Assembly: GCA_029747015.1 (NCBI GenBank)
Contig: JAKOGI010000120.1
Location: 1-64,000, forward strand
Direction: 5' to 3'
DNA from: Carnegiea gigantea
Lineage: Eukaryota; Streptophyta; Magnoliopsida; Caryophyllales; Cactaceae
DNA: 64,000 nucleotides
The notes below the pieces were generated by a model that was not told where the DNA came from, searched no databases, and was given only the letters and a program-made list of their open reading frames with translations. How positions within the stretch are numbered: the stretch's first letter is position 1; every line of letters begins with the position of its first letter. This document shows positions 30,538 to 60,681 of this stretch, piece after piece. The translations under genes and the position numbers were made by a program.

Positions 30538-30555
30538 TGGTATCAGAGCCAGGTT
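30538..30555 (+). other. Primer-binding site (tRNA-iMet)
   Basis: TGGTATCAGAGCCAGGTT, four bases after the LTR. Full initiator-Met tRNA type site. Confidence 0.92.
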
Positions 30556-30648
30556 CAGATCCTTGCCTGAACCCCACGCCATTCCCAGCTTAGCTCTGAA
30601 TTCATTTCAAACACAGTCAAGCACAAACCGTTCATTCCTGCGATCACA

Positions 30649-39800: not shown

Positions 39801-40919
39801 ACATAATTGTACATCCATTTCACTAGGCTTGCTAGCAAGTTTCCTTGCAAAGGTAGGATTTACAAAAGAATGCGTGGCACCTGAATCAAATAAAACATGA
39901 GCATAAAGATGTTTAACAAAAAGGGTACCTGATACGGTGGTAGTGAGGTCCTCTGCCTCACCCCCTTCCAAGCTAAACACCCGGCCACCTGCTTGCGGCC
40001 TTTTTCCACCTCGTTTGCCTTCTGAAGTTGCATTCACAGGAGGCCGGCCTCTTTGTGGAACTGGATTAGCCCCCGTGCCTGAACCTTGTGTACTGTTCTG
40101 CCGATTCCACGCCTTTTTGGGGCAATTTGCAATTTTGTGGTCCGTAGATCCACACCCATAGCATTCTTGTGTGCCATATCGGCACCGACCGGAGTGCATA
40201 CGCCCACACTAGTTGCAGGGTTCTAGTGTCAGCCTTGGTACAACTTGCTTTCCTTTCCCCCGGTTGCCGAAGTTGCTGATCTTATTGCTTCCCTAGGTAC
40301 TGGACCCTCCTTGGTTAAACTTTCTTTTTGCTGGGCCTATCTGCCGACATTCCTCTTCGGTTTCAGCTATAACTCGGGCTGTCTTCACCGCCCTCTGGTG
40401 CATCTCCTGGAAGCTGGTGAAAACATGCCCAGCTATCATCCGCTTAATGGGTCCTTTAAGGCCTTGCTCGAAGTGGTCCATCTTCATTTCTTCAGTTGCG
40501 ACTTGATTAGGCGCAAAGCGACTAAGCTCGTTAAACTTTGCCGCATATTCTACCACACTCATTTAGCCTTGTTTCAACCGTAGAAATTCTTGTTCCTTCG
40601 CCCTCTTTACATCTCGTGGGTAATACTGAGCATCCATCATGGTTTTTAGTTGTTCCCAGGTTAGAGCTGGTTCACCAGCTCGAGGTTTGACAGTACCCCA
40701 CCAGAACTCCGCTTCCTTTTCGAACTGATGGGTCGCCAGACGTACTTTAAAATCTTCAGGGCAGTCCATTACTTCAAACAAATTCTCCATCCTTCTTAGC
40801 CATTGTTCATAGGCAAGAGGATCTGTTCCACCACTAAACCTTGGTGGTTTCAGCTTATTAAACCGACAAATCATCTCCAAGGCGGTTTGCGCCGCCACCT
40901 GTTCCCTTCGTGGAGGCAT
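36823..40919 (-). pseudogene. gag-pol: Tekay Gag-Pol of element A, truncated and with many stops
   Basis: Pieces on the minus strand: Gag 40919-40563 and 40562-40293; zinc knuckle, DSGA protease and reverse transcriptase 40199-38856 (447 codons); RNase H 38881-38297 and 38245-37955; integrase 37936-37649 and 37549-36823. The breaks are in-frame stops at Gln, Trp or Gly codons still intact in B or C (near 40564, 40295, 38296, 37954, 37648 and 37560), plus a 2-bp deletion just after the FIDD box near 38868. The last part of integrase and the chromodomain are absent: homology ends after LALPPSL at 36823. Clearly dead, and older or longer silenced than C. Confidence 0.9.
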
Positions 40920-41204: not shown

Positions 41205-41918
41205 CTAATTACCACCTGAGGAACCCTCCTCAGGGGGATCATCTACCGTTGGATCATTCGAGCCCTCAGACTCCACTGGGGCTAGTAGGTCCCATAATAC
41301 AAATGGTGGGGAGTACTCCACATCAGGTGCTCCATCCACCAGTTCTCTCATCCTCAGCATTGTGGCTTGCCAGCCCCGGGGGTATTGTGCACCGAAGGAA
41401 TCTATCCAACGTGCCCACAGAGTGGCTACTCGCTTGTATCGTCTTGCCTGAGGGTTTTCCGCGAACAGAAGTCTCATTTGACGATGTTCAATCTGATTTC
41501 TCTCTACTATTGTGATTGGTAGTTGTTGGGTAGTGGCAGGAGCAATTAAAGCCGTATTGATCATTTGCATGCCAGCATCGCTCCTTCCCAAGGGGGTATT
41601 TCCTAAGGAGTCCACCCGTCCTTCTGCTAACATTAGGAAATCCACTAATCCCCTGAAAGTAAACGGAGTATGAGCTCCCCTGCGTACATGAAATAGACGG
41701 AGGATGGAGGTGACCTCGCTCCATCTTGCCGTGTGTGGCATTGTTCCGATGAACTTGTAAGTCCAGTGGTTTTGAGTGACCTGTAAGGGTCTCCACTGGT
41801 TGCTCCTAATCATTGCTTCCCAAAAGAAGACCGCATTCCACACGGCCAGCCAGAATGGAAGGTACTCGAAATCATCAATGCTAAACACCATCCTACACCA
41901 CCACACAGGATTAGACAT
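41205..41918 (-). CDS. Extra ORF upstream of Tekay gag, unknown protein (copy A)
   Basis: Open frame of 237 codons in the same orientation as gag, between primer-binding site (42094) and gag ATG (40919). I do not recognise the protein. It is rich in Trp (12 residues), has an aromatic N-terminal part (MVFSIDDFEYLPFWLAVWNAVFFW), a basic middle (RRYKRVATLWARW) and an acidic end (DPTVDDPPEEG). No signal peptide, zinc knuckle or enzyme motif is seen. The copy in element B differs at only 14 of 237 residues and is also open, while gag-pol of A has many stops. The start could be MSNP (41918) or the Met ten codons on. Additional ORFs in this position are known in some plant retrotransposons (for example ORF1 of Ogre), but I cannot link this one to them. 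Confidence 0.7.
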   Translation of the reverse strand: MSNPVWWCRMVFSIDDFEYLPFWLAVWNAVFFWEAMIRSNQWRPLQVTQNHWTYKFIGTMPHTARWSEVTSILRLFHVRRGAHTPFTFRGLVDFLMLAEGRVDSLGNTPLGRSDAGMQMINTALIAPATTQQLPITIVERNQIEHRQMRLLFAENPQARRYKRVATLWARWIDSFGAQYPRGWQATMLRMRELVDGAPDVEYSPPFVLWDLLAPVESEGSNDPTVDDPPEEGSSGGN

Positions 41919-42080
41919 AAACTAACAAGCACGCATTTGAATGAGAGTCCTAAGCCATGTTCTAGTTCGTGCCCACAAGTATGCAAAACAAGCATATAGT
42001 AAGCTCAAGTAAACACTTTAAGGCACATACTTTCACACATTAACACTCCTAAGGTCACATCTATATGCATATGCAACCTA

Positions 42081-42094
42081 TGGCTCTGATACCA
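42081..42094 (-). other. Primer-binding site of element A
   Basis: Minus strand TGGTATCAGAGCCA, five bases from the LTR boundary at 42100. Confidence 0.9.
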
Positions 42095-43611
42095 CCTAAT
42101 GTAACACCCCCGACTACCTTTCAGGGATGTCACACCGCCAGGATCCCCCGAGGGAGACCCCTAAGGCTCTTCTTCTATTAACTTTCTTCTAAATTTTACC
42201 AAACTTTAGTTTAGGTTAGGAAAACCTGGGACGAAACCGGCAGAGTTCCGTCTGTAATTACAACAATTCCAAAATTCACATTATGAAATTCAGTGTACCT
42301 GTGAACTTTTAAACCAAAATGCAAAATAACTAGGAGTACCAACAAGTCACACACTCGTGGTGGGGCTTAAGCCCTTTACAAACCACTTATTACAAAAGAT
42401 TTACATAGGTTCGTACTGCCAGAGCCTTCGAGCCGCTATATGACCAACGTACGCACTTTCTTAAAACAAAACATCACTTCAGATGGCTTCACAACTTCAC
42501 ATTATAGGCACATCAGCAGAAGCTACTAGCGGTCCATTCATTCTTCACCTGGGGGAAAAAGGGGAGAGGAAATGGAGTAAGCCACCACATGCTCAGTGAG
42601 TGTTCCTCCACTCCTTAAAATAAAACCTTTTTCAAGCAATAATACCCATAATATTCACTTATCAAGCATTTAGCTAAAACTAACATGGTATTAGGCAACA
42701 TATTATAGGACACAGGTTGAGGAACATAAACATCGGATAAGTCACGACTTATGTATTCACTAGGCACATATGAATGTCATTTCACGATTCACTAGCATGT
42801 CACATATTCTATTTGAAGCCACATTCATTATATTTAAGAACATTTTCTTTAAATCTGCAATGAAACTTTCTTTGAACATTTGAAAGCGTTTCACAACCTT
42901 GAGGTTCTCAATCTTTTTGAAAGAGTTTACATTTCGCATTCGTCGTAAAACGACCCTTGTATGCATTTCATATTCATTTCATATGGCCTCTTTGGGCCCA
43001 TAAAACATTCTTTTTCTTTAAAACATATAAAATGGCAAAGGCCAATTGCTTTTCTTATCTTGGTAAGAAAATACTTCTGGCATAAGATCATTACAGGGTG
43101 CTGATTGGGTGAGAACTATTCTCGACCCCATAGTGAGACCTAACGCTCACGCTTAAGCTCTTACTCCCGGGATGGCTACATATAACATATCGGACCATTA
43201 CATTAGCCCTCATCAGGGCCTCTAAGGTTTATCCGGACTTATCCCCTAGGTTAACATTACATCATATCATATTGTCCGCAGCACATTATCTTAGCCACTT
43301 AAAGCGTATCGGCCATAACGGCTAGTAATTGTCCGTTTCAAACAATAAAATCATTCAACGTATAATTCCCATCTCTCTTTTGTTAAAAACATTTTAGGGA
43401 TTCCTCCCAAATACTATTTAAATAGCTAAAATAGGCCATAGCTCGTTACTAGACATGGCTATTGTTCATTTAAAACACATGAAAAGTCATTTGCTAAAAC
43501 ATCACCCTTCCACACACATGTTACATTTTAAACATACAAGAAAAAGGGAAATACACATATCACATTTAAACACTTCGTAATCATTTCAACACAATGAGCC
43601 ACACATGGCCT

Positions 43612-43630
43612 CGCAATCCACACGATTGCG
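43612..43630. other. Conserved LTR hairpin CGCAATC/GATTGCG
   Basis: Identical to 20202-20220 and 52593-52611, in otherwise diverged surroundings. Confidence 0.7.
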
Positions 43631-44059
43631 GTAATTTCATAACCCGAACTCCCTCCTCACAAGCACCGTACCACAAGACCTCGAACGCTCATGATTCTTT
43701 CCTCAAACCATCCAACTACCAACTCAATTCATCGATTCATTAATCACAACATATTATCATATTAGCTTATGTAAAAGGGAGCAAGGCTTAGGCTCTTACC
43801 TGAGCAACCAGCATCATTCAGCGAAGCGTTACAATAAGCGTGCATATAGCCACATTATTCATAATTCGACAACACTTTATTCAGTAAATCAAGCATAATT
43901 CGATTCTAAACATATACGTTGCATTTCGAATCAACTTCCCTAAGCATGAATGTACTAAAAAGAGTTCGAATTTATTTCGTTTACACACATAATACATTAG
44001 GTAGTTCAATTCGAATGGGAGCTACACACGTTAAACTAACTTCGTTTTTAATCCCTTTT

Positions 44060-44440
44060 CATATATTAGCTAAATAACTTGAATCGATGCTAAACATATC
44101 AAACTACCTTCGTTTCTAATACCTTTTCAAACAATAACTCATTAACTAGATTCGAAGCTAAATACGTTAAATTAACTTTGATTTTAATTCGTTTTAAACA
44201 ATAACTCTTTAACTCGAATCGAAGCTGAATATGTTAAATTAACTTCGATTTTAATTCTGTTTTAAACAATAACTCTTTAACTCGAATCGAAGCTAAATAT
44301 GTTAAATTAACTTCGATTTTAATTCCGTTTTAAACAATAACTCTTTAACTCGAATCGAAGCTAAATATGTTAAATTAACTTCGATTCTAATCCCGTTTTA
44401 AACAATAACTCATTATCTCGATTCAAAGCTAAATACGTCC
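44060..44440. repeat. 68-bp tandem array in Tekay LTR
   Basis: AACAATAACTC phrases start at 44130, 44197, 44265, 44333 and 44401, a period of 67-68 bp. Each unit holds AATCGAAGCTAAATATG. Lies in the predicted intron. Confidence 0.9.
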
Positions 44441-44815
44441 GCATAAATTCGGATTCACTGTTCACGCAGACTATGGTTTATGTACAGGATTCACATCGAT
44501 TCACAAATTCAGCCATGAAACAACCAATTGATTCGAACCTAAGCATGAATAACTTATTTCTTGTCATTTCTAACGAATTTAACAAGCCCTAACTTGACAT
44601 GCAACATCACACCGCTGAAAAATTAACTTCGAAAATAGTAATAACTTAGGAGGGAGAAACACTTACTTGGGTTAACCTAGTTTCAACCTCAAACGGTGAA
44701 TACCGATGCTCCTATACTGCTAAACCCGAACCCAAGCCCGTCAGCCAGCAATTTTCGAACCCTAGCCCTCGTTTTCGCGATGCTTCTGGCGGATTGAGGC
44801 TCGATTTTGGCTCTA

Positions 44816-44822
44816 ATTTATA
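44816..44822 (-). promoter_or_regulatory. Tekay LTR TATA box
   Basis: Minus strand TATAAAT within CTTCTCTATAAATTAGAG. Same site at 55502-55508 in the next LTR. It places the transcription start near 44790 and U3 to the right. Confidence 0.6.
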
Positions 44823-45033
44823 GAGAAGGCTGGGTTGAAGGTGGGTCGTCGGTTTCCGGCAGGTGAACGGCCGGTTCTGGGCGAGGGGACGCGTGGGTGA
44901 GAGGCTGTGCGAGGTGGATGAAGTTTGGTGGTGGAATGGGCGGCTGAGACGCGTGGTGTGAGGGACCGTTCGTCCCTTTCTCTCGCCGGTGACGCGTGCT
45001 GGCCGGCGGCAGCACCAGGTGGTCGGTCGCCGG

Positions 45034-45080
45034 TGAGAGAGAGAGAGAGAGTGAGAGAGATGCGTTAGAGAGAGAGAGAG
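45034..45080. repeat. (GA)n microsatellite in U3
   Basis: GA repeats with two interruptions; on the minus strand a CT tract some 210-260 bp upstream of the TATA box. Also at about 55720-55766. Confidence 0.9.
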
Positions 45081-45515
45081 CGTGCGGGGCGGGGTTCTGC
45101 CCGAAACTTCGGTCCCCCCTTTCCCCCTTTTCAATCCTTTTCCTTTTTCTTTTTTTTTTTGTTGTTTTGGGTTAAACTAGCAACATTCAACTAAATTCTG
45201 GTCCCGTACCCACTAATGGTTAGGCTAAACCCGAATTGAACGACCTACCATGTACATTTCGATTTAAACTTTGGGAATCAGCCAAGTAAAACGAAAAACG
45301 ATTTTAAAAACTGGGTTTAGCGTAGATTCAAATATTTTATAAATAAGTAGCGTCAATGATAACATTAGTCAAATAATCGTCCCTTTTATTGAAACTAGTT
45401 GTCAAAAACTCACACGGTCGGTTTAATACTTTCGTCGGATAACGAATCAAAAGCAACTGGTAAAATCAGCAACTAAACAGTTAGTCAGTAATAGCATGAA
45501 AGCATGGTCCTTACA

Positions 45516-45534
45516 CTCTCCCCCCTTAAAAGAA
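45516..45534 (-). other. Polypurine tract of element B
   Basis: Minus strand TTAAGGGGGGAGAG directly before TGTAAGG of the LTR. Confidence 0.85.
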
Positions 45535-46884
45535 TTTCGTCCTCGAAATTTGCTTACCTGTTGAAAATAATGCGGGATATTTCTCACGCATTTCGCTTTC
45601 TAACTCCCAAGTTGCTTCTGCCACCTTGTGATGTTTCCATAACACCTTAACATAGGGAATGCTCCTATTTCTGAGCTTCTTTTCCGTCTTCTTCAAAATC
45701 GGAATGGGTTCTTCTACATAGGTGAGATTTTCCTTAACTTGTAGGGGTTCATATCGGATGACATGATCCAGATCCGGAACATATTTCCTGAGACTGGATA
45801 CATGAAATACATCGTGGATGCCTTGCAATGAGGGTGGTAAGGCCAGTTGGTACGCAACCGTTCCTACTTTCTGCAAGACTTCAAACGGTCCAATGAACCG
45901 TGGGCTTAGTTTCCCCTTTTGTCCAAATCTTATGCTTCCCTTGAGTGGGGACACTTTCAGAAATACATGGTCTCCAATCTCAAACTCCAGCGGCCTTCTC
46001 CTATTATCCGCGTAGCTCTTTTGTCTACTCTGTGCAGCTTGCAATCTCTTGCGGATTGTCTTGATTATTCCGATCGTTCGATTGATTAAGTCAACCTTGG
46101 ATGGTTCCCTTTCTCCTACTTCATTCCAACAAACCGGAGTTCTGCAACGTCTACCATATAGCGCCTCGAAAGGAGCCATGCCTATACTGGCATGGTGACT
46201 ATTATTGTACGCAAATTCAACCAGAGGCAAGTTATGATCCCAAGTTCCAGCAGAATCGAGGGCACAGGCTCTCAACATATCCTCCAGAGTTTGAATAGTT
46301 CTTTCGGTTTGACCATCCGTTTGAGGATGGAAGGGCGTACTTAATCGTAATTTTGTGCCCATCGCTCTTTGAAACCCATGCCAGAAGCGAGATACAAACT
46401 TGGTATCGCGATCTGACACAATACTGAGTGGCACACCATGCAGTCTAACTATCTCCTTAATGTATAGGTTAGCTAGTTGCTCAGAGGTGAAAGTGGCCTT
46501 GATGGGCAAGAAGTGTGCAGCCTTAGTCAATCTGTCAACTATAACCCACACACTATCGTGCTGTTTGATGGTTTTCGGCATTCCAATCATGAAATCCATG
46601 GTGATGTGTTCCCATTTCCACTCAGGAATTGGCAAGGGTTGTAGTAAACCTCCAGGTTTCTGATGCTCGGTTTTCACCCGTTGGCACGTAAGGCATCGAG
46701 CCACGTACTCTGCGATATCCCTTTTCATGCCATTCCACCAGTAATGGGTCTTCAAGTCATGGTACATCTTCGTACTTCCAGGGTGTACAACAAGTGTGGA
46801 ATTGTGCGCCTCCTTTAACAATTCCTTCTTGAGAGCTGTTATGTTCGGCACACAAAGTCTATTCCATGTACCAAAGTACTTCAT
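45526..46884 (-). CDS. pol: Tekay integrase with chromodomain (element B)
   Basis: Open frame of 452 codons in phase with integrase homology from about 46855. Shows the HHCC finger ([12 protein letters not shown]...CLTCQ), catalytic residues in [17 protein letters not shown] and TDGQTERTI, the [10 protein letters not shown] module and, over about the last 70 residues, a chromodomain ([27 protein letters not shown]), which in Tekay is thought to direct integration to methylated-histone chromatin. It ends at the polypurine tract. Separated from the RNase H part by frameshifts between 46865 and 47090 (relative to C: one inserted base near 46867, single deletions near 47029 and 47089), so it is not made as part of Gag-Pol. 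Confidence 0.92.
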   Translation of the reverse strand: MKYFGTWNRLCVPNITALKKELLKEAHNSTLVVHPGSTKMYHDLKTHYWWNGMKRDIAEYVARCLTCQRVKTEHQKPGGLLQPLPIPEWKWEHITMDFMIGMPKTIKQHDSVWVIVDRLTKAAHFLPIKATFTSEQLANLYIKEIVRLHGVPLSIVSDRDTKFVSRFWHGFQRAMGTKLRLSTPFHPQTDGQTERTIQTLEDMLRACALDSAGTWDHNLPLVEFAYNNSHHASIGMAPFEALYGRRCRTPVCWNEVGEREPSKVDLINRTIGIIKTIRKRLQAAQSRQKSYADNRRRPLEFEIGDHVFLKVSPLKGSIRFGQKGKLSPRFIGPFEVLQKVGTVAYQLALPPSLQGIHDVFHVSSLRKYVPDLDHVIRYEPLQVKENLTYVEEPIPILKKTEKKLRNRSIPYVKVLWKHHKVAEATWELESEMREKYPALFSTGKQISRTKFF

Positions 46885-47063
46885 TTTGGATGGAGAATTC
46901 CTTATTCCTTCCTTCTTCCACGCCTTTCTTTATCTTCATAAGTTCAGGGTCATCCTTCTGCTGTTGCTTGATCGTTTCGATCAATGGCGAAGAGACTTGA
47001 AGCGCTGCCAAGTAGCCTTGATTTCCTGCAGCACTACCTCTATTTGTAGCATGTCGAGCTCCC

Positions 47064-49640
47064 TTAGGAGTCTCTTTTCTTGTGTAAGTAACAGGCTACA
47101 GACCCCATGGATTTTCTACTTAGTGCGTCAGCCACCACGTTTGCTTTTCCAGGGTGATATTTGTTCTCCATATCATAATCCTTAAGGAGTTCTAGCCATC
47201 TTCTTTGTCTCGTGTTTAACTCTTTTTGAGTAAAGATGTATTTCAAGCTCTTGTGGTCAGTGTATACTTCACACCTTACTCCATAGAGATAATGTCTCCA
47301 GATTTTTAAGGCAAACACAACCGCGGCCAAGTCTAGGTCATGTGTTGGATAATTCTCTTCGTAGGGCTTCAATTGGCGAGAGGCATAAGCAATAACTCTG
47401 TCTTTCTGCATTAATACACAGCCCAGTCCCTTCTTGGACGCATCACTGTAGATTACAAATCCTTCATTGCCTTCAGGTATTGCCAATATTGGTGCAGATA
47501 CCAAACGTTTCTTTAGCTCCTGAAAGCCATCTTCGCACTCCGGGGTCCATTCAAATTTAGTGGTCTTCCAAAGTAGTTTGGTAATAGGTAAGGCTAGTTT
47601 TGAAAATCCTTCTACAAACCTTCGATAGTAGCCAGCTATACCTAAGAAGCTTCGCACTTTGAAGACATTTGTTGGTCTTGGCCAGTGTACAATGGCCTCT
47701 ACCTTTGCCGGGTCCACCGAGATGCCATCTTTGGTTACTATGTGTCCCAGAAATTGCACCCTTTCTAACCAGAACTCACACTTTTTAAGTTTGGCATATA
47801 ATTTGTGCTCTTTTAGGGTTTTCAGCACCATTCGCAAGTGGTTTGCATGCTCTTCCCTAGTCTTGGAGTATACCAAGATATCATCGATGAACACCACTAC
47901 AAATTTATCTAGGAAGGGCCTAAGGACTCTGTTCATCAAGTCCATAAAGAAGGCAGGAGCGTTCGTTAGTCCGAACGGTAACACCAAAAAGTCGTAATGG
48001 CCATATCGAGTGCGAAAAGCGGTTTTAGGCACGTCCTCCTTCTTGATCTTCAATTGATGGTACCCCGATCTCAAATCAATCTTCGAGAACACCGAAGCAC
48101 CAGCCAATTGATCAAACAGGTCATCAATTCGAGGAAGTGGGTATTTATTCTTGACCGTTACCTTATTTAGTTCTCGATAGTCGATACATAACTTCAAACT
48201 CCCATCTTTCTTCTTCACAAAAAGTACTGGTGCTCCCCAGGGTGAAACACTAGGCTGAATTAACCCCTTATCTAGTAACTCTTGCAACTGAGTTTTCAAC
48301 TCTGCCAATTCCGCAGGTGCCATTCGATAAGGTGCCTTGGATATTGGGGCAGTTCCAGGTACTAGTTCAATGGTGAATTCGATTTCTCTGTCGGGTGGTA
48401 GCCCCGATACCTCTCGAAACACCTGTGGAAATTCCCTCGCTATCGGAATCTCACTCAAGTCCAGCTCCTTTAGTTCTGCGACCTCAATTGCACACAAATA
48501 GCCCTGACATCCTTTCTTCAACATTTTGAGTGCTTGCGTAGCAGATACCGTTGGGATGGTCACGTGGTGGCCACTTCCCTTAAAGGTTACTCTTTCTTCA
48601 TCGGAGGCCGAGAAGGTAACCAGCTTTCTCTCGCAGTCAATAGTAACTTTATGTCTAGTTAACCAGTCCATCCCTAGAATAACGTCCCAACCTTGTATAT
48701 CCAGCTGTACCAGGTCTACAGGGAGAATTCTCCCTTCCAATTGAATAGCACAGTCCTTAAGAACGAGATCGGTATAGTAAGTAGACCCTAAGGGGGTAGT
48801 CACACATAATTGTACATCCATTTCACTGGGCTTGCTAGCGAGTTTCCTTGCAAAGGTAGGATTTACAAAAGAATGTGTGGCACCTGAATCAAATAAAACA
48901 TAAGCATAAAGATGTTTAACAAAAAGGGTACCTGATACGGTGGCAGTGAGGGCCTCCGCCTCACCTCCTTCCAAGCTAAACACCCGGCCACCTGCTTGCG
49001 GCCTTTTTCCACCTCGTTTGCCTTCTGAACTAACATTCACAGGAGGCCGGTCTCTTTGTGGAACTGGATTAGCCCCCGTGCCTGAACCTTGTGTACTGTT
49101 CTGCCGATTCCACGCCTTCTTGGGGCAATTTGCAATTTTGTGGTCCGTAGATCCACACCCATAGCATTCTTGTGTGCCATATCGGCACCGACCGGAGTGC
49201 ATACGCCCACACTGGTTGCAGGGTTCCAGTGTCTGCCTTGGTACAACTTGCTTTCCTTTCCCTCGGTTGTCGAAGTTGCTGATCTTATTGCTTCCTTGGG
49301 TACTGGACCCTCCGTGGTTAAACTTTCTTTTTGCTGGGCCTATCTGCCGACTTTCCTCTTCGGTTTCAGCTATAACTCGGGCCATCTTCACCGCCCTCTG
49401 GTACATCTCCTGGAAGCTGGTGAAAACATGACCAACTATCATCCGCTTAATGGGTCCTTTAAGGCCTTGCTCGAAGTGGTCCATCTTCATTTCTTCAGTT
49501 GCGACTTGATTAGGCGCAAAGCGACTAAGCTCGTTAAACTTCGCTGCGTATTCTACCACACTCATTTGGCCTTGTTTCAACCATAGAAATTCTTGTTCCT
49601 TTGCCCTCTTTACATCTCGTGGGTAATACTGGGCATCCAT
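47064..49640 (-). CDS. gag-pol: Tekay Gag (most), protease, reverse transcriptase, RNase H (element B)
   Basis: 858 codons. Gag capsid part, [12 protein letters not shown] and a CCHC knuckle (C159, C162, H167, C172), protease DSGA (D251) with ILGMDWL flap-end motif, reverse transcriptase with FIDD (F584-D587), RNase H with [10 protein letters not shown]. The RNase H residue aligned with Glu in [10 protein letters not shown] of A and C is Asp here, so the active site may be weakened even apart from the frame breaks. The frame starts inside Gag at MDAQYYP because of lesions just upstream, and ends by frameshift after RKSMGSVAC. Confidence 0.92.
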
Positions 49641-49648
49641 CGTAGTTT

Positions 49649-49921
49649 TTAGTTGTTCCTAGGTAAGAGCTGGTTCACCAGCTTGGGTTTGACAGTGTCC
49701 CACCAGAATTCCGCTTCCTTTTCGAACTGATGGGTCGCCAGACGTACTTTAAAATCTTCGGGGCAGTCCATTACTTCAAACAAATTCTCCATCCTTCTTA
49801 GCCATTCTTCATAGGCAAGAGGATCTGTTCCACCACTAAACCTTGGTGGTTTCAGCTTATTAAACCGACAAATCATCTCCAAGGCGGTTTGTGCCGCCAC
49901 CTGTTCCCTTCGTGGAGGCAT
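49649..49921 (-). pseudogene. gag: Gag N-terminus of element B
   Basis: True gag start, MPPRREQVAAQTALEM, as in A and C. Continues to FWWDTVK, then a one-base deletion (near 49684) and a Trp to TAG change (near 49661) separate it from the main frame that starts at 49640. Confidence 0.88.
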
Positions 49922-50033
49922 TGGCTACACAGTCGTTTGTGCAAAGTTGCTTAGTTTTTATTCATAAAAATAGATTGTCAAAGCATTTAAAAACATAGTA
50001 TAACATTAGACAGAATGTGTAGAGCTTTAAGTA

Positions 50034-50062
50034 TTCGTGCGATCCTATTTTGGTCGCACGAA
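50034..50062 (-). other. Hairpin between extra ORF and gag (element B)
   Basis: Same 9-bp stem and 11-nt loop as 41032-41060. Confidence 0.6.
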
Positions 50063-50208
50063 CACTTCTCAAAAATACACTTTCACGAATCACAAAATAT
50101 CAGGTATCACCCTTGTTTATTCATTTTCGAACGCACACTAACTATGTTTTATTTAAATACAATGCACACATTGGCGACTCCAGGCTACACACAGCCCCTA
50201 TTACCATC

Positions 50209-51012
50209 CTAATTATCACATGAGGAACCCTCCTCAGGGGGATCATCTACCGTTGGATCATTCGAGCCCTCAGACTCCACTGGGGCTAGTAGGTCCCATA
50301 ATACAAATGGTGGGGAGTACTCCACATCAGGTGCTCCATCCACCAGTTCTCTCATCCTCAGCATTGTGGCTTGCCAGCCCCGGGGGTATTGTGCACCGAA
50401 GGAATCTATCCAACGTGCCCATAGAGTGGCTACTCGCTTGTATCGTCTTGCCTGAGGGTTTTCTGCGAACAAAAGTCTCATTTGACGATGTTCAATCTGA
50501 TTTCTCTCTACTATTGTGATTGGTAGTTGTTGGGTAGCGGCAGGAGCAATTAAAGCCGTATTGATCATTTGCATGGCAGCATCGCTCCTTCCCAAGGGGG
50601 TATATCCTAAGGAGTCCACCCGTCCTTCTGCTAACATTAGGAAATCCACTAATCCGCTGAAAGTAAATGGAGTATAAGCTCCCCTGCGTACATGAAATAG
50701 ACGGAGGATGGAGGTGACCTCGCTCCATCTTCCCGTGCGCGGCATTGTTCGGATGAACTTGTAAGTCCAGTGGTTTTGAGTGACCCATAAGGGTCTCCAC
50801 TGGTTGCTCCTAATCATTGCTTCCCAAAAGAAGACCGCATTCCACGCGGCCAGCCAGAATGGAAGGTACTCGAAATCATCAATGCTAAACACCATCCTAC
50901 ACCACCGCATGGGATTAGACATAACAAGCACGCATTTGAATGAAAGTCCTAAGCCATGTTCTAGTTCGTGCCCACAAGTATGCAAAACAAGCATATAGTA
51001 AGTCCTAGGCAC
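50209..51012 (-). CDS. Extra ORF upstream of Tekay gag, unknown protein (copy B)
   Basis: Open frame of 267 codons. The last 237 codons (from Met at 50922, MSNP) correspond to the ORF of element A with 14 substitutions, all but three in the first 120 residues; the first 30 codons are not in frame in A, so MSNP or the following Met is the likelier start. Trp-rich with acidic C-terminus. Lies between the primer-binding site (51080) and gag (49921), the same layout as A. Retention of an open frame in both copies suggests it was functional when the elements last moved. Function unknown. Confidence 0.7.
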   Translation of the reverse strand: MPRTYYMLVLHTCGHELEHGLGLSFKCVLVMSNPMRWCRMVFSIDDFEYLPFWLAAWNAVFFWEAMIRSNQWRPLWVTQNHWTYKFIRTMPRTGRWSEVTSILRLFHVRRGAYTPFTFSGLVDFLMLAEGRVDSLGYTPLGRSDAAMQMINTALIAPAATQQLPITIVERNQIEHRQMRLLFAENPQARRYKRVATLWARWIDSFGAQYPRGWQATMLRMRELVDGAPDVEYSPPFVLWDLLAPVESEGSNDPTVDDPPEEGSSCDN

Positions 51013-51080: not shown

Positions 51081-52592
51081 CCTAATGTAACACCCCCGAC
51101 TACCTTCCAGGGATGTCACACCGCCAGGATCCCCCGAGGGAGACCCCTAAGGCTCTTCTTCTATTAATTTTCTTCTAAATTTTACCAAACTTTAGTTTAG
51201 GTTAGGAAAACCTAGGACGAAACCGGCAGAGTTCCGTCTGTAATTACAACAATTCCAAAATTCACATTATGAAATTCAGGGTACCTGTGAACTTTTAAAC
51301 CAAAATGCAAAATAACTAGGAGTACCAACAAGTCACACACTCGTGGTGGGGCTTAAGCCCTTTACAAACACTTATTACAAAAGATTTACATAGGTTCATA
51401 CTGCCAGAGCCTTTGAGCCACTACATGACCAACGTACGCACTTTCTTAAAACAAAACTCACTTCAGATGGCTTCACAACTTCACATTATAGGCACATCAG
51501 CGGAAGCTACTAGCAGTCCATTCATTCTTCACCTGGGGGAAAAAGGGGAGAGGAAATGGAGTGAGCCACCACATGCTCAATGAGTGTTCCTCCACTCCTT
51601 AAAACAAAACCTTTTTCAAGCAATAATACCCATAATATTCACTTATCAAGCATTTAGCTAATACTAACATGGTATTAGGCAACATATTATAGGACACAGG
51701 TTGAGGAACATAAACATCGGACAAGTCACGACTTATGTAGTCACTAGGCACATTTGAATGTCATTTCACGATTCACTAGCATGTCACATATTCTATTTGA
51801 AGCCACATTCATCATATTTAAGAACATTTTCTTTAAATCTGCAATGAAACTTTCTTTGAACATTTGAAAGCATTCCATAACCTTGAGGTTCTCAATCTTT
51901 TGAAAGAGTTTACATTTCGCATTCGTCGTAAAACGACCCTTGTATGCATTTCATATTCATTCCATGTGGCCTCCTTGGGCCCATAAAACATTCTTTTTCT
52001 TTAAAACATATAAAATGGCAAAGGCCAATTGCTTTTCTTATCTTGGTAAAAAAATACTTCTGGCATAAGATCATTACAGGGTGCTGATTGGGTGAGAACT
52101 ATTCTCGACCCCATAGTGAGACCTAACGCTCACGTTTAAGCTCTTACTCCCGGGATGGCTACATATAACATATCGGACCATTACATTAGCCCTCGTCAGG
52201 GCCTCTAGGTTTTATCCGGACTTATCCCCTAGGTTAACATTACATCATATCATATTGTCCGCAGCACATTATCTTAGCCACTTAAAGCGTATCGGCCATA
52301 ACGGCTAGTAATTTTCCGTTTCAAACAATAAAATCATTCAACGTATGATTCCCCATCTCCCTTTTGTTAAAACGTTTTAGGGATTCCTCCCAAACACTAT
52401 TTGAATAGCTAAAATAGGCCATAGCTCGTTACTAGACATGGCTATTATTCATTTAAAACACATGAAAAGTCATTTGCTAAAACATCACCCTTCCACACAC
52501 TTGTTACATTTTAAACATACAAGAAAAGGGAATACACATATCACATTTAAACACTTCGTAATCATTTCAACACAATGAGCCACACATGGCCT

Positions 52593-52611
52593 CGCAATCC
52601 ACACGATTGCG
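52593..52611. other. Conserved LTR hairpin CGCAATC/GATTGCG
   Basis: Third copy of the hairpin at 20202 and 43612. Confidence 0.7.
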
Positions 52612-53214
52612 GTAATTCCACAACCCGAACTCCCTCCTCATAAGCACCGTACCACAAGACCTCGAACGCTCATGATTCTTTCCTCAAACCATCCAACTAC
52701 CAACTCAATTCATCGATTCATTATTCACAACATATTATCATATTAGCTTGTGTAAAAGGAGCAAGGTTTAGGCTCTTACCTGAGCAACCAGCATCATTCA
52801 GCGAAGCATTACAATAAGCGTGCATATAGCCACATTTATTCATAATTCGACAACACTTTATTCAGTAAATCAAGCACAATTCGATTCTAAACATATACGT
52901 TGCATTTCGAATCAACTTCCCTAAGCATGAATGTACTAAAAAGAGTTCGAATTTATTTCGTTTACACACATAATACATTAGGTAGTTCAATTCGAATGGG
53001 AGCTACACACGTTAAACTAACTTCGTTTTTAATCCCTTTTCATATATTAGCTAAATAACTTGAATCGATGCTAAACATATCAAACTAACTTCGTTTCTAA
53101 TACCTTTTCAAACAATAACTCATTAACTGGATTCGAAGCTAAATATGTTAAATTAACTTTGATTTTAATTCCGTTTTAAACAATAGCTCTTTAACTCGAA
53201 TCGAAGCTGAATAA

Positions 53215-54916
53215 TGATGGAGTTCTGGTGGTCATCCCTCACTTCCATAATGTTTAGGCAAGAACCAAAAAGAAAAAAACAAGCCTAGACATCAAAATAC
53301 ACCATGCTGCCGGGTCAGATTGCACTTACCCGTGAAATCTGATTATGGTCACCTAATTTTGGGGTGACTTAAGTCCTTAATTTTGGTGTTCTCATAAACC
53401 CTAGGAAGTTAGGTTTCTAATAAAACAAGTTTCAGCCTCATTGGAGTTCATTTGGTCATCCAAAATCTATGTTTAAATCAAACTGCCCTGAAGACAGTTT
53501 ACATCCAGATTTTACCCGGTTTTGGAGATTATATTCCTTAATCTTCCATGAGGTTTAAGTGTCCAATTTTTGCATCCCTGAAAAGCTTAAGATCGTAGCT
53601 TTCATTTCCAATTGGAATTACCAGATTTGGAGTTCAATTGGTTAGTGAACTAAGCTAATTAGTAAACCTGTGTTGTTTTGGAGTCCAATCTGTACGGTTT
53701 TGGGAATCAAGCTGATTCAAGGGGCAAATGACGTCCAAATGCTACGATTCCAATTGGAGGGCAAACTAGACATCTTGAGGTTTCCAACCATGTAAGAAAC
53801 GTAGCAATTAGTCATCATTTGAGGTGTCAAACATGCGTTGCAAGTGGAGGCAAAAACCGGCTGCTTGACACCCGGTTGCTTAGCCTGGTGGTTTTCCTCC
53901 TTCAAGGGGTTTTCTTAAGGTGGAAGGCTGCCAAGCAGGTCATTTTGAGCTGCTTGATTAAGCACCACTCAGATACTTGAGAGAGAGACACGTGGAGCTA
54001 GTGAAACGCCACCATTTTGCAAGCTCTCATTCGACCACTCAAGCATGACATGGCACACATGCAATTTTCAGTCCTTTTGAGGTGGCAGCCGTGCACTCTT
54101 CCCTTCCTAGCTGGGAAATTGAGTCATCTACATTCCTTAATGCATAGGAAAGGCTTAGGAAGATAAATTAAGTGCTTTGTAATATAAACTTTCAGCTTAT
54201 GTGTGTTTTAGCTTAAACCGTGTATTACTAAGCATAGGATTAGTTTAATGACTTTCCTTGCCTAGAAGGAAAGCTCTTTTCATGTAATCACAAGGCTATA
54301 TAAATGCCTTGGCTGCTCTTTTGTAAAAACAACAAGTTTTGAGTATTAAAGTTGAGAGCAAAGACTTTGTGTCTTGTGATTTCTTAAACACTTAACTTGC
54401 TTATCCTTAATTGTGGTCGATTAAGGTGGTGACCAAGTGAGTCTTGATCTTTGGTTAGGTGGTGTATCTTATCCTAATCCAAGATTAAAGGCCCTAAGCT
54501 AAGTGATTAGTGGTGTATCTTATCTAATCACAAGGCTTAGAACTATCCAGATTCCATTGAATTCACTTAAAGTTCATGAAGTTAGCTTTGGGTTCCTTAA
54601 ACCAAAGCTCTCCTTTTTCATGTGTTCTAATCAGTGAACTTCATTCCCACATCTCCTTTTTGTTTTCATATTCATTTCAAGCTTAATCAAGGCCAAGAAT
54701 TCTTGCTTTGATTCAGTTTTGAGCCCAAACACAAAAACCATCTCAAAAAAACCGTGAAAATCACAAACTAGGCGTGCTTAGGCAGCAAGTTGGCACGGTG
54801 CCCCCGTGCCTTGAAGCACGACCGTGCCACCCCTGGTTCGTGAGTTTCCCACTTGTTTTGGTTGTGTTCCTGTTGTAAGTTAGCTTGGGTTGTTCCTACC
54901 CTTGAGACTTACATCA
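53215..54916 (+). mobile_element. CRM-like solo LTR (1702 bp)
   Basis: TGATGGAGTTCTGG...GACTTACATCA, with no internal sequence. Its right half follows the LTR at 1738-3271, including TATATAA (54297) and the hairpin block (54792-54828); its left half is different, so it is a separate subfamily. It sits in a 68-bp repeat of the Tekay LTR: the uninterrupted neighbour LTR reads GCTGAATATGTTAAA. No 5-bp target duplication is visible (GCTGAATAA before, ATGTTAAA after). Confidence 0.85.
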
Positions 54917-55501
54917 ATGTTAAATTAACTTCGATTTTAATTCTGTTTTAAACAATAACTCTTTAATTCGAATCGAAGCTAAATATGTTAAATTAACTTC
55001 GATTTTAATTCCGTTTTAAACAATAACTCTTTAACTCGAATCGAAGCTAAATATGTTAAATTAACTTCGATTCTAATTCCGTTTTAAACAATAACTCATT
55101 ATCTCGATTCAAAGCTAAGTACGTCCGCATAAATTCGGATTCACTGTTCACGCAGACTATGGTTTATGTACAGGATTCACATTGATTCACAAATTCAGGC
55201 ATGAAACAACCAAGTGATTCGAACCTAAGCATGAATAACTTATTTCTTATCATTTCTAATGAATTTAACAAGCCCTAACTTGACATGCAACATCACACCG
55301 CTGAAAAATTTTCTTTAAAAATAGTAATAACTTAGGAGGGAGAAACACTTACTTGGGTTAGCCCAGTTTCAACCTCAAACGGTGAATACCGATGCTCCCA
55401 CACTGCTAAACCCGAACCCAAGCCCGTCAGCCAGCAATTTTCGAACCCTAGCCCTCGGTTTCGCGATGCTTCTAGCGGATTGAGGCTCGATTTTGGCTCT
55501 A

Positions 55502-55508
55502 ATTTATA
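55502..55508 (-). promoter_or_regulatory. Tekay LTR TATA box
   Basis: Minus strand TATAAAT; counterpart of 44816-44822. Confidence 0.6.
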
Positions 55509-56206
55509 GAGAAGGCTGGGTTGAAGGTGGGTCGTCGGTTTCCGGCAGGTGGACGGCCGGTTCTGGGCGACGAGACGAGTGGGTGAGAGGCTGTGCGAGG
55601 TGGATGAAGTTTGGTGGTGGAATGGGCAGCTGAGACACGTGGTGTGAGGGACCGTTCGTCCCTTTCTCTCGCCGGTGACGCGTGCTGGCCGGCGGCAGCG
55701 CTAGGTGGCCGGTCGCCGGTGAGAGAGAGAGAGAGAGTGAGAGAGATGCGTTAGAGAGAGAGAGCGTGCGGGGGGGTTCTGCCCGACTTCGGTCCACCCT
55801 TTCCCCCTTTTCAATCCTTTTTCTTTTTCTTTTTTTTTTTTGTTGTTTTGGGTTAAACTAACAACATTCAACTAAATTTTGGTCCCGTACTCGCTAATGA
55901 TTAGGCTAAACCCGAATTGAACGACCTACCATGTACATTTCGGTTTAAACTTTGGGAATCAGCCAAGTAAAACGAAAAACGATTTTAAAAACTGGGTTTA
56001 GCGTAGATTCAAATATTTTATAAATAAGTAGCGTCAATGATAACATTAGTCAAATAATCATCCCTTTTATAGAAACTAGTCGTTAAAAACTCACACGGTC
56101 GATTTAATGCTTTCGTCGGATAACGAGTCAAAAGCAACTGGTAAAATCAGCAACTAAACAGTTAGTCAGCAATAGCATGAAAGCATTGTCCTTACACTCT
56201 CCCCCC

Positions 56207-57274
56207 TTAAAAGAATTTCGTCCTCGAAATTTGCTCACCTGTTAAAAATAATGCGGGATATTTCTCACGCATTTCTAACTCCGAAGTTGCTTCTGCCACC
56301 TTATGATGTTTCCATAACACCTTAACATAGGGAATGCTCCTATTTCTGAGCTTCTTTTCCGTCTTCTCCAAAATCGGAATGGGTTCTTCTACATAGGTGA
56401 GATTTTCCTTAACTTGTAGGGGTTCATATCGGATGACATGATCCGGATCCGGAACATATTTCCTGAGACTGGATACATGAAATACATCGTGGATGCCTTG
56501 CAATGAGGGTGGTAAGGCCAGTTGGTACGCAACCGTTCCTACTTTCTGCAAGACTTCAAACGGTCCAATGAACCGTGGGCTTAGTTTCCCCTTTTGTCTA
56601 AATCTTATGCTTCCCTTGAGTGGGGACACTTTCAGAAATACATGTTCTCCAACTTCAAACTCCAGCGGCCTTCTCCTATTATCCGCGTAGCTCTTTTGTC
56701 TACTCTGTGCAGCTTGCAATCTCTTGCGGATTGTCTTGATTATTCCGATCGTTCGATTGATTAAGTCAACCTTGGATGGCTCCCTTTCTCCTACTTCATT
56801 CCAACAAACCGGAGTTCTGCAACGTCTACCATATAGCGCCTCGAAAGGAGCCATGCCTATGCTGGCATGGTGACTATTATTGTACGCAAATTCAACCAGA
56901 GGCAGGTTATGATCCCAAGTTCCAGCAGAATCGAGGGCACAGGCTCTCAACATATCCTCCAGAGTTTGAATAGTTCTTTCGGTTTGACCGTCCGTCTGAG
57001 TATGGAAGGGCGTACTTAATTGTAATTTTGTGCCCATCGCTCTTTGAAACCCATGCCAGAAGCGAGATACAAACTTGGTATCGCGATCTGACACAATACT
57101 GAGTGGCACACCATGCAGTCTAACTATCTCCTTAATGTATAGGTTAGCTAGTTGCTCAGAGGTGAAAGTGGCCTTGATGGGCAAGAAGTGTGCAGCCTTA
57201 GTCAATATGTCAACTATAACCCACACACTATCATGCTGTTTGATGGTTTTTGGCATTCCAATCATAAAATCCAT
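56207..57274 (-). CDS. pol: Tekay integrase core and altered chromodomain (element C)
   Basis: 355 codons from MDFMIGMPK. It keeps [17 protein letters not shown] and GPFEVLQKV. In the chromodomain the conserved Trp of EATWE is Ser (EATSELEM) and two residues present in B are deleted, so histone binding is probably lost. A 10-bp deletion near 57338 separates it from the finger domain in the upstream frame. Ends at the polypurine tract complement (from 56197). Confidence 0.9.
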
Positions 57275-59868
57275 GGTGATGTGTTCCCATTTTCACTCAG
57301 GAATTGGCAAGGGTTGCAGTAAACCTCCAGGTTTCTTTTCACCCATTGGCACGTAAGGCATCGAGCCACGTACTCTGCGATATCCCTTTTCATGCCATTC
57401 CACCAGTAATGGGTCTTCAAGCCATGGTACATCTTTGTACTTCCAGGGTGTACAACAAGTGTGGAATTGTGCGCCTCCTTTAACAATTCCTTCTTGAGAG
57501 CTGTTATATTCGGCACACACAGTCTATTCCCGTACCAAAGTACTTCATTTTCGATGGAGAATTCCTTATTCCTTCCTTCTTCCACGCCTTTCTTTATCTT
57601 CATAAGTTCAGGGTCATCCTTCTGCTGTTGCTTGATCGTTTCGATCAATGGTGAAGAGACTTGAAGCGCTGCGAAGTAGCCTTGATTTCCTGACCGCACT
57701 ACCTCTATTTGTAGCACGTCGAGCTCCCTTAGGAGTTTCTTTTCTTGTGTAAGTAAACAGGCTACCGACCCCATGGATTTTCTGCTTAGTGCGTCAGCCA
57801 CCACGTTTGCTTTTCCAGGGTGATATTTGATCTCCATATCATAATCCTTAAGGAGTTCTAGCCATCTTCTTTGTCTCATGTTTAACTCTTTTTGAGTAAA
57901 GATGTATTTCAAGCTCTTGTGGTCAGTGTATACTTCACACCTTACTCCATAGAGATAATGTCTCCAGATTTTTAAGGCAAATACCACCGCGGCCAATTCT
58001 AGGTCATGTGTTGGATAATTCTCTTCGTAGGGCTTCAATTGGCGAGAGGCATAAGCAATAACTCTGTCTTTCTGCATTAATACACAACCCAGTCCCTTCT
58101 TGGACGCATCACTGTAGATTACAAATCCTTCATTGCCTTCAGGTATTGCCAATATTGGTGCAGATACCAAACGTTTCTTTAGCTCCTGAAAGCCATCTTC
58201 ACACTCCGGGGTCCATTCAAATTTAGTGGTCTTCCAAAGTAGTTTGGTAATAGGTAAGGCTAGTTTTGAAAATCCTTCTACAAACCTTCGATAGTAGCCA
58301 GCTATACCTAAGAAGCTTCGCACTTCGGAGACGTTTGTTGGTCTTGGCCAGTTTACAATGGCCTCTACCTTTGCCGGGTCCACCGAGATGCCATCTTTGG
58401 TTACTATGTGTCCCAGAAATTGCACCCTTTCTAACCAGAACTCACACTTTTTAAGTTTGGCATATAATTTGTGCTCCTCTAGGGTTTTCAGCACCATTCG
58501 CAAGTGGTTTGCATGCTCTTCCCTAGTCTTGGAGTATACCAAGATATCATCGATGAACACCACTACAAATTTATCTAGGAAGGGCCTAAGGACTCTGTTC
58601 ATCAAGTCCATAAAGAAGGCAGGAGCGTTCGTTAGTCCGAACGGTAACACCAAGAACTCGTAATGGCCATATCGAGTGCGAAAAGCGGTTTTAGGCACGT
58701 CCTCCTTCTTGATCTTCAATTGATGGTACCCCGATCTCAAATCAATCTTCGAGAACACCGAAGCACCAGCCAATTGATCAAACAGGTCATCAATTCGAGG
58801 AAGTGGGTATTTATTCTTGACCGTTACCTTATTTAGTTCTCGATAGTCGATACATAACCTCAAACTCCCATCTTTCTTCTTCACAAATAGTACTGGTGCT
58901 CCCCAGGGTGAAACACTAGGCTGAATTAACCCCTTATCTAGTAACTCTTGCAACTGAGTTTTCAACTCTGCCAATTCCGCAGGTGCCATTTGATAAGGTG
59001 CCTTGGATATTGGGGCAGTTCCAGGTACTAGTTCAATGGTGAATTCGATTTCTCTGTCGGGTGGTAGCCCCGATACCTCTCGAAACACCTGTGGAAATTC
59101 CCTCGCTATCGGAATCTCACTCAAGTCCAGCTCCTTTAGTTCTGCGACCTCAATTGTACACAAATAGCCCTGACATCCATTCTTCAACATTTTGAATGCT
59201 TGCATAACAGATACCGTTGGGATGGTCACTTGGTGGCCACTTCCCTTAAAGGTTACTCTTTCTCCATCGGAGGCCGAGAAGGTAACCAGCTTTCTCTTGC
59301 AGTCAATAGTAACTTTATGTCTAGTTAACCAGTCCATCCCTAGAATAACGTCCCAACCTTGTATATCCAGCTGTACCAGGTCTACAGGGAGAATTCTCCC
59401 TTCTAATTGAATAGCACAGTCCTTAAGAACGAGATCGGTATAGTAAGTAGACCCTAAGGGGGTAGTCACACATAATTGTACATCCATTTCACTGGGCTTG
59501 CTAGCAAGTTTCCTTGCAAAGGTAGGATTTACAAAAGAATGCGTGGCACCTGAATCAAATAAAACATGAGCATAAAGATGTTTAACAAAAAGGATACCTG
59601 ATACGGTGGCAGTGAGGTCCTCCGCCTCACCTCCTTCCAAGCTAAACACCCGGCCACCTGCTTGCGGCCTTTTTCCCCCTCGTTTGCCTTCTGAAGTTGC
59701 ATTCACAGGAGGTCGGCCTCTTTGTGGAACTGGATTAGCCCCCGTGCCTGAACCTTGTGTACTGTTCTGCCGATTCCACGCCTTCTTGGGGCAATTTGCA
59801 ATTTTGTGGTCCGTAGATCCACACCCATAGCATTCTTGTGTGCCATAGCGGCACCGACCGGAGTGCAT
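57262..59868 (-). CDS. pol: Tekay zinc knuckle, protease, reverse transcriptase, RNase H, integrase finger (element C)
   Basis: 868 open codons, the longest intact stretch of the array. Order: [14 protein letters not shown] knuckle, DSGATHSF protease, reverse transcriptase with [17 protein letters not shown] and [10 protein letters not shown], RNase H with [10 protein letters not shown] and the catalytic Glu ([10 protein letters not shown]), linker, integrase HHCC finger up to CLTCQ. The frame then runs out at the 10-bp deletion. No premature stop inside, in contrast to A. Confidence 0.92.
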
Positions 59869-60587
59869 ACGCCCACACTGGTTGCAGGGTTCCAGTGTCT
59901 GCCTTGGTACAACTTGCTTTCCTTTCCCCCGGTTGTCGAAGTTGCTGATCTTATTGCTTCCCTGGGTACTGACCCTCCTTGGTTAAACTTTCTTTTTGCT
60001 GGGCCTATCTGCCGACTTTCCTCTTCGGTTTCAGCTATAACTCGGGCTATCTTCATCGCCCTCTGGTACATCACTTGGAAGCTGGTGAAAACATGCCCAG
60101 CTATCATCCGCTTAATGGGTCCTTTAAGGCCTTGCTCAAAGTGGTCCATCTTCATTTCTTCAGTTGTGACTTGATTAGGCGCAAAGCGACTAGGCTCGTT
60201 AAACTTCGACGCGTATTCTACCACACTCACTTGGCCTTGTTTCAACCGTAGAAATTCTTGTTCCTTTGCTCTCTTTACATCTCGTGGGTAATACTGAGCA
60301 TCCATCATGGTTTTTAGTTGTTCCCAGGTTAGAGCTGGTTCACCAGCTCGAGGTTTGACAGTACCCCACCAGAACTCCGCTTCCTTTTCGAACTGATGGG
60401 TCGCCAGATGTACTTTAAAATCTTCGGGGCAGTCCATTACTTCAAACAAATTCTCTATCCTTCTTAGCCATTCTTCATAGGCAAGAGGATCTGTTCCACC
60501 ACTAAACCTTGGTGGTTTCAGCTTATTAAACCGACAAATCATCTCCAAGGCAGTTGGTGCCGCCACCTGTTCCCTTCGTGGAGGCAT
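59703..60587 (-). pseudogene. gag: Tekay Gag (element C), frameshifted
   Basis: Starts MPPRREQVAAPTALEM at 60587 (the open frame extends to 60638 only because LTR sequence is fused upstream). Capsid with CRFNKLKPPRFSGG, FWWGTVKPRAG and the coiled SVVEYASKFNE part. One base is missing near 59967 (compared with A and B) after FNQGG, which shifts the frame before the zinc knuckle; the proper frame continues in 59868-57262. Confidence 0.88.
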
Positions 60588-60593
60588 TGGCTT

Positions 60594-60681
60594 ACTTTCG
60601 TCGGATAACGAATCAAAAGCAACTGGTAAAATCAGCAACTAAACAGTTAGTCAGTAATAGCTTGAAAGCATGGTCCTTACA
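60594..60681 (-). repeat. Remnant of 5' LTR of element C (88 bp)
   Basis: Only the last bases of the Tekay LTR as read on plus (CTTTCGTCGGATAACG to GGTCCTTACA) remain, joined to a point just upstream of gag. The LTR body, primer-binding site, extra ORF and hairpin are deleted, so C has no promoter of its own. Confidence 0.88.

What the first reader, a model, noticed from the sequence alone, without database searches (positions are those of the whole stretch)
41205..51012. Conserved extra ORF between primer-binding site and gag in Tekay elements
Elements A (41205-41918) and B (50209-50922) both have an open frame of 237 codons upstream of gag, same strand, 14 residues different. Gag-pol of A carries at least six stops, yet this ORF is open in both copies. 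The protein is Trp-rich (12 Trp), with aromatic N-terminus and acidic C-terminus, and I recognise no domain. Tekay elements are normally described with gag-pol only, so this may be an undescribed accessory protein of a Tekay subfamily.
Basis: partly seen in the sequence, partly recalled or inferred. Interest (0 to 1): 0.75.

Follow-up and report, generated by a model that had tools for sequence, protein, structure and literature searches.

The report
Extra gene in plant retrotransposon leader
A family of plant jumping genes carries, ahead of its usual genes, an extra small protein gene that natural selection has kept working; such extra genes are already known in related elements, but this particular protein showed no recognisable relatives and has no known job.

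Summary
The ORF is real and coding. It lies on the minus strand between primer-binding site and gag in elements A and B. The start is probably Met10, not Met1: in a sister subfamily (17 of 17 copies) and in 3 of 3 copies of a deep subfamily a stop at codon 7 lies just before it. The protein is therefore about 228 aa.

Between two subfamilies of the same genome pN/pS is 0.15 in the N-terminal half, like the gag N-terminus (0.16); forward shifted frames give 1.6-1.8. At least 117 of 150 copies picked by gag carry the ORF upstream. It persists across subfamilies about 53% identical in protein. Many copies are broken, as expected for dead copies.

No Pfam, NCBIfam or PDB relative was found. Two low-confidence models agree on an all-helical protein; composition gives a basic body and acidic tail.

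This is a new protein family of that known kind, as far as I could search. Most likely it is an accessory protein of the element's own life cycle; its biochemical role is open.

The parts
50209..50895 (-). 5' accessory ORF of element B, from the conserved Met10 (228 codons + stop); 237 codons if read from 50922
   Evidence: start, open frame, pN/pS 0.15 between subfamilies
41205..41891 (-). 5' accessory ORF of element A, from Met10 (228 codons + stop); 237 codons if read from 41918
   Evidence: 14 differences from B over 237 residues
51071..51080 (-). Primer-binding-site motif (TGGTATCAGA) of B
   Evidence: exact motif in 62 of 70 copies, mostly 194 or 201-204 nt before Met10
42085..42094 (-). 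Primer-binding-site motif of A
49922..50208 (-). Intercistronic spacer of B between ORF stop and gag ATG; length varies 278-303 nt between copies, in all three frames
   Evidence: 64 of 70 copies measured; RNA fold of 49925-50208, z = -3.44
50029..50067 (-). Hairpin in the spacer of B (14-bp stem, 11-nt loop)
   Evidence: found in 71 of 73 copies, 10-14 of 14 positions paired (12 in 47 of them); no compensatory change seen
47064..49921 (-). gag (ATG at 49921, frame broken near 49680) and protease-RT-RNaseH of B (open frame 49640-47064)
45526..46884 (-). Integrase of B with weak C-terminal chromodomain match
42100..45515 (-). LTR shared by B (as 3' LTR) and A (as 5' LTR), TGTAAGGACC...GGTGTTACA; the polypurine tract AAGGGGGGAGAG precedes it
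51086..56196 (-). LTR between B and the third unit C, interrupted by an insertion at about 53213-54917
56197..60681 (-). Third tandem unit C: first ~89 nt of LTR joined to gag start; rest of LTR, PBS and accessory ORF missing
40563..40919 (-). gag N-terminal frame of A (used as control and as gag query)

Best explanation
It is the first cistron of a chromovirus-type Ty3/gypsy LTR retrotransposon and encodes a ~228-residue accessory protein that serves the element's own replication. Shown here: position, start, frame under purifying selection of about the strength seen on the gag N-terminus, and retention across subfamilies that have diverged to ~53% protein identity. Inferred from composition and weak models: a soluble all-helical protein with a basic body (calculated pI 9.7-10.7 for residues 1-180) and an acidic tail (net charge -10 to -13). 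My most likely role is a nucleic-acid-binding helper acting on the element's RNA or cDNA (export, packaging, nuclear import or protection from silencing). I give about 0.3 to that role and 0.85-0.9 to 'accessory protein under selection'. Inferred expression: ribosomes reach Met10, which has a strong start context, on the full-length RNA; gag-pol is made separately, from a spliced RNA or by re-initiation across the hairpin-containing spacer.
For: Selection: pN/pS between two subfamilies over codons 10-120 is 0.069/0.472 = 0.15. Codon-position differences are 8.4, 7.1 and 31.3%. The two shifted forward frames give 1.63 and 1.76. The gag N-terminal 118 codons give 0.16 and the next 300 codons 0.27. 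Restricted to the 57 of 70 copies that are also gag-chosen, the ratio is still 0.15. Variants shared by 3 or more copies are 49 N to 69 S, against 98 N to 52 S for singletons, p = 1.2e-4. Start: at the Met10 codon A(-3) and G(+4) stand in 70 of 70 copies (the codon itself is lost in 2 of them), a stop lies at codon 7 in 17 of 17 copies of the second subfamily and 3 of 3 of the deep one, and several distant homologues start there. Spread: 150 of 150 scored places for each of two queries 53% identical to each other, from 1597 and 1578 candidates, the two lists partly overlapping. 111 of 150 gag-chosen copies have an ORF of the first list just upstream, and six of six further ones read have it with frameshifts. 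Outside: 94 proteins from public contigs at E<=1, none with a name or Pfam domain shown. Two models each give nine helices at nearly the same places.
Against: No expression data, and no homologue of known function. Models are poor (mean pLDDT 52 and 55). A versus B alone gives pN/pS 0.025/0.032 (dN/dS 0.75), as expected for changes made after insertion but no support in itself. Three copies of the deep subfamily compared among themselves give 0.45-0.60, and two of these three have lost the Met10 start. Singletons in the 70 copies give 0.57, not 1, against 0.64 and 1.22 for the two shifted frames, so part of the low ratio may come from choosing copies by ORF score. One antisense frame also shows a low ratio, 0.24, probably because its third positions mirror those of the ORF. 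The lack of indels in the 70 copies is an effect of that choice: all six gag-chosen copies read outside the list had frameshifts. Five to nine ATGs lie between PBS and Met10 in the 62 copies measured, so simple scanning is not obvious.
Confidence: 0.85

Rival explanations
1. The ORF is an N-terminal extension of gag made by splicing or frameshifting, not a separate protein.
For: Two sequences from public contigs (P0012, P0016) join the ORF in frame to gag at the same point. The last ~60 nt before gag ATG, ending TGTGTAG|CC in most copies, stay alignable in a subfamily whose ORF protein is only ~53% identical, and look like a plant intron end.
Against: The spacer changes length across all three frames. 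The ORF has its own stop, with a conserved acidic tail before it. The P0012/P0016 joint has no GT donor in the window copy and looks like a shared deletion.
Confidence: 0.07
2. A chance open frame in a young leader sequence.
For: Many copies are nearly identical, and A versus B alone is near neutral.
Against: pN/pS 0.15 with frame-specific third-position bias; deep conservation; 0 of 20,000 shuffles open.
Confidence: 0.02
3. A captured host gene picked up by the family.
For: Host-gene capture by LTR elements is known in plants (PMC7264820, parts 1 and 2 of 3 read).
Against: No Pfam, NCBIfam or PDB relative and no named cellular homologue in the searches made. Present in widely diverged subfamilies of the element.
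Confidence: 0.06
4. The protein is a diverged duplicate of the gag capsid domain.
For: Predicted all-helical, adjacent to gag.
Against: Profile comparison with the gag N-terminus gives probability 0.3%; no Retrotrans_gag hit in 62 members. A distant fold match could not be tested with such poor models.
Confidence: 0.08

Closest known systems
ORF0 of rice RIRE3, RIRE8, Retrosat2 and FRetro3 (Tekay/Del-type elements)
   Same: Extra ORF between 5' LTR and the gag-pol ORF, LTRs of about 3 kb, no firm function (PMC3485330, passages read).
   Different: [quoted passage not shown] I had no ORF0 sequence to compare, so homology is untested. There ORF0 evolves faster than gag-pol; here the ORF and the gag N-terminus have similar pN/pS.
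Sunflower Tekay group-2 5'aORF
   Same: 5' position; present in 500 of 523 elements of its group; no known domain (PMC11728184, section 2.5 read).
   Different: 402 aa, 15.9% proline, mostly predicted disordered, with a nuclear localisation signal. The window protein is ~228 aa and predicted helical with an acidic tail.
eORF-5'F class of plant LTR elements
   Same: Sense ORF upstream of the polyprotein (PMC6317226, passages read).
   Different: That survey required 250 codons, so a 228-codon ORF would fall below it. It sorts the eORF proteins of Ty3/gypsy elements into 314 similarity groups.
ORF1 of Ogre/Tat elements
   Same: Extra ORF upstream of gag (a 1527-bp ORF in a Medicago Ogre family: PMC2533021, passage read).
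   Different: Different clade and tRNA primer; the plant mobile domain frequent in Ogre extra ORFs (PMC6317226, passage) was not hit by any of 62 members here.

Membership tests
Ty3/gypsy chromovirus | Protease-RT-RNaseH-integrase order | tested here: met
   RVP_2, RVT_1, RNaseH in one frame of B, then H2C2 and rve in the next
Ty3/gypsy chromovirus | Chromodomain at the integrase C-terminus, upstream of the PPT | tested here: inconclusive
   Chromo E = 0.017, 15.5 bits against a cut-off of 25.1, at residues 399-438; the PPT overlaps and follows the stop
Tekay/Del clade | RT/INT phylogeny within Tekay | not testable with these tools
Tekay/Del clade | Met-tRNA primer-binding site next to the 5' LTR | tested here: met
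   TGGTATCAGA at 42094 and 51080, five bases after the LTR end; that it matches tRNA-Met is recalled, and a tRNA-Met PBS is described for beet chromoviruses (PMC3605345, passage read); not specific to Tekay
5'aORF / ORF0 of Tekay elements | Sense ORF between PBS and gag | tested here: met
5'aORF / ORF0 of Tekay elements | Present in most copies of the family | tested here: met
   111 of 150 gag-chosen copies by list, plus 6 of 6 further ones read; unit C lacks it and 32 were not checked
5'aORF / ORF0 of Tekay elements | Sequence homology with published ORF0 or 5'aORF proteins | not tested
5'aORF / ORF0 of Tekay elements | Nuclear localisation signal | not tested
   no predictor at hand

The most novel reading that the evidence does not exclude
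A protein family not yet in Pfam or NCBIfam, founded deep in one plant lineage's chromoviruses, expressed from the unspliced genomic RNA while gag-pol is made from an RNA in which the ORF is removed as an intron ending at the conserved TGTGTAG before the gag ATG. That would make the ORF a splicing-controlled early protein, comparable in logic to retroviral regulatory proteins.
Probability: 0.2. Interest if true: 0.6.

Novelty: new member of a known kind. Interest (0 to 1): 0.42.

Why it matters
In the papers I saw, no 5'aORF of a plant LTR element has a demonstrated function, and the authors of one survey ask whether such ORFs have any (PMC6317226, passage). Here one genome holds a large, multi-subfamily set of copies with a selection signal like that on gag. 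So in this lineage the question 'do 5'aORFs do anything?' has a good answer, and the protein is small enough to test directly. The likely true start codon and the spacer tell annotators where to cut the gene.
Full report
WHAT WAS CHECKED. Both ORFs exist on the minus strand at the stated coordinates with 237 codons, 14 residue differences and 12 Trp each. Each sits between a PBS-like TGGTATCAGA (42094 in A, 51080 in B) and gag (40919 in A, 49921 in B). Gag, protease, RT, RNaseH and integrase are recognised by Pfam in B; the chromodomain only weakly.

START CODON. In the own genome the ORF query had 1597 candidates. The best 150 were scored and all matched. I fetched 70 of these 150. In a second subfamily (17 fetched, L039-L055) Met1 is absent and codon 7 is a stop in 17 of 17, after which Met10 opens the frame. 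Three copies of a deep subfamily, L079-L081, show the same stop; one has ATG at the Met10 codon, and two carry a single change there and so have lost it. Several proteins from other sources (P0001, P0003, P0011, P0021, P0025, P0054, P0082, P0084) begin at the same Met; P0012's frame runs on upstream. A at -3 and G at +4 stand in 70 of 70 copies. The gene is therefore about 228 codons: B 50895-50209, A 41891-41205; the nine codons before it look like a later extension in the window's subfamily.

SELECTION. Over codons 10-120 the two subfamilies differ by pN 0.069 and pS 0.472 (ratio 0.15), and by 8.4, 7.1 and 31.3% at the three codon positions. Forward shifted frames give 1.63 and 1.76. Antisense frames give 1.56, 1.92 and, in one case, 0.24; the last probably mirrors the ORF's third positions. 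The same copies give 0.16 for the gag N-terminus and 0.27 for the next 300 codons. After codon ~117 the subfamilies are nearly the same (3-6% differences against 15-21% before), which points to recombination inside the ORF. Changes shared by three or more copies are 49 N and 69 S, singletons 98 N and 52 S (Fisher p = 1.2e-4); the per-site ratio is 0.22 for shared and 0.57 for singleton changes, and in the shifted frames 1.15 and 1.08 for shared, 0.64 and 1.22 for singletons. Against the deep subfamily dN/dS is about 0.13-0.19 where it can be computed, but dS is near saturation, and for L081 it could not be computed. A versus B alone is 0.75, and the three deep-subfamily copies compared among themselves give 0.45-0.60, which I read as decay after insertion.

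INTACTNESS AND ITS BIAS. 60 of 70 fetched copies are open from Met10 to codon 230 with Met10 in place; 8 have one stop and 2 have lost Met10. From the table, 65 of 150 have no stop in the matched stretch and 27 more have only a single TGA with a frame of 230 or more residues, the pattern of the second subfamily, so about 92 of 150 look open from Met10 (my coding of the table, counted; the 17 copies of the second subfamily in hand bear it out). The 150 were ranked by ORF score, so frameshifted copies were lost. To test this I ranked copies by gag instead (15,902 candidates, best 150 scored). Of these, 111 have an ORF of the first list just upstream, and 39 do not. One of the 39 is unit C of the window, which lacks the ORF. 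I read six of the other 38: all six have the ORF, each with one or more frameshifts. So the ORF is present in at least 117 of 150 gag-chosen copies, with 32 unchecked. Of the 70 fetched copies 57 are also gag-chosen; 50 of these 57 are open from an ATG at Met10, and their pN/pS is unchanged at 0.15.

DEPTH. With P0011 (53% identical to B) as query the same genome gave 1578 candidates and 150 scored matches. They include a subfamily at about 78-89% identity to P0011, older copies at 54-75% mostly with several stops, and, at the foot of the list, copies of the window's own subfamily at 53-54%. L079-L081 carry the ORF followed by a spacer and gag. 94 proteins from public contigs match the family profile at E <= 1; none is shown with a name or Pfam domain.

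WHAT THE PROTEIN LOOKS LIKE. Length 228, no membrane-like stretch (maximum 19-residue hydropathy 1.12-1.24), residues 1-180 with calculated pI 9.7-10.7, the rest with net charge -10 to -13 (A, B, P0001 and P0011). Two AlphaFold2 models from different alignments give nearly the same nine helices but mean pLDDT of only 52.2 and 54.8, so no fold is claimed.

LEADER AND SPACER. In 62 of 70 copies an exact PBS motif was found, mostly 194 or 201-204 nt before Met10, with five to nine ATGs in between. The distance from ORF stop to gag ATG, measured in 64 of 70 copies, varies from 278 to 303 nt in all three frames. The spacer of B folds better than all 200 shuffles (z = -3.44) and holds a hairpin found in 71 of 73 copies, with 10-14 of 14 positions paired and no compensatory changes. 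The last ~60 nt before gag, ending TGTGTAG|CC in most copies, are the best-conserved part of the spacer between B and L079; in L050 the AG is lost. Read as a plant intron end this suggests that gag-pol could be made from a spliced RNA; this is an inference without transcript evidence.

MECHANISM. Shown: a selected, separate cistron with its own start and stop. Inferred: translation from full-length RNA, a soluble helical protein with a basic body, and an accessory role in the element's life cycle. A nucleic-acid-related role is my best guess at about 0.3.

KNOWN AND NEW. 5' extra ORFs in Tekay-type elements are in print: ORF0 of RIRE3, RIRE8, Retrosat2 and FRetro3 (PMC3485330, passages) and sunflower (PMC11728184, abstract, section 2.5 and passages). 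PMC7264820 (parts 1 and 2 of 3) treats mainly 3' extra ORFs. PMC6317226 (passages) describes eORFs as heterogeneous and of open function, with a 250-codon cut. PMC12786077 and PMC4093653 were seen as passages. I searched the held library seven times and found no description of this protein; with no sequence search of papers and no species name this is weak evidence of novelty. I file it as a new member of a known kind.

Noticed in passing
36823-60681; G000 contigs C569, C3965, C2827, C841, C466, C1848, C4412, C4190, C1616: The elements stand head to tail sharing LTRs (LTR-A-LTR-B-LTR-C here). 21 of the 150 ORF-chosen and 17 of the 150 gag-chosen copies have a same-strand neighbour 8.1-9.1 kb away, and the list shows similar rows (C2773, C1788, C674; spacings read by eye). 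Tandem LTR elements are described as common in plants (PMC11899658, abstract).
   Followed up: partly
60560-60681: Unit C: the first ~89 nt of the LTR are joined straight to the gag start, dropping the rest of the LTR, PBS and accessory ORF.
   Followed up: partly
50029-50067: Hairpin of 14 bp with an 11-nt loop in the spacer between accessory ORF and gag, found in 71 of 73 copies, not found in L074 and L079.
   Followed up: partly
L009-L055, about codon 117 of the ORF: Sharp drop of divergence between subfamilies within the ORF (15-21% to 3-6%), as left by recombination between element subfamilies.
   Followed up: no
P0012 and P0016 (proteins from public contigs): The accessory ORF is joined in frame to gag at the same point (QQLPI, then K/Q and RMI), probably a shared deletion derivative.
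   Followed up: no
28979-36592: A plus-strand element with 1.55-kb LTRs 96.7% alike adjoins the left part of unit A.
   Followed up: no
G000 contigs C1071 and C4295: Two neighbouring ORF copies on each contig score identically, with nearly the same spacing, so the contigs may be two haplotypes or a duplication of one region.
   Followed up: no
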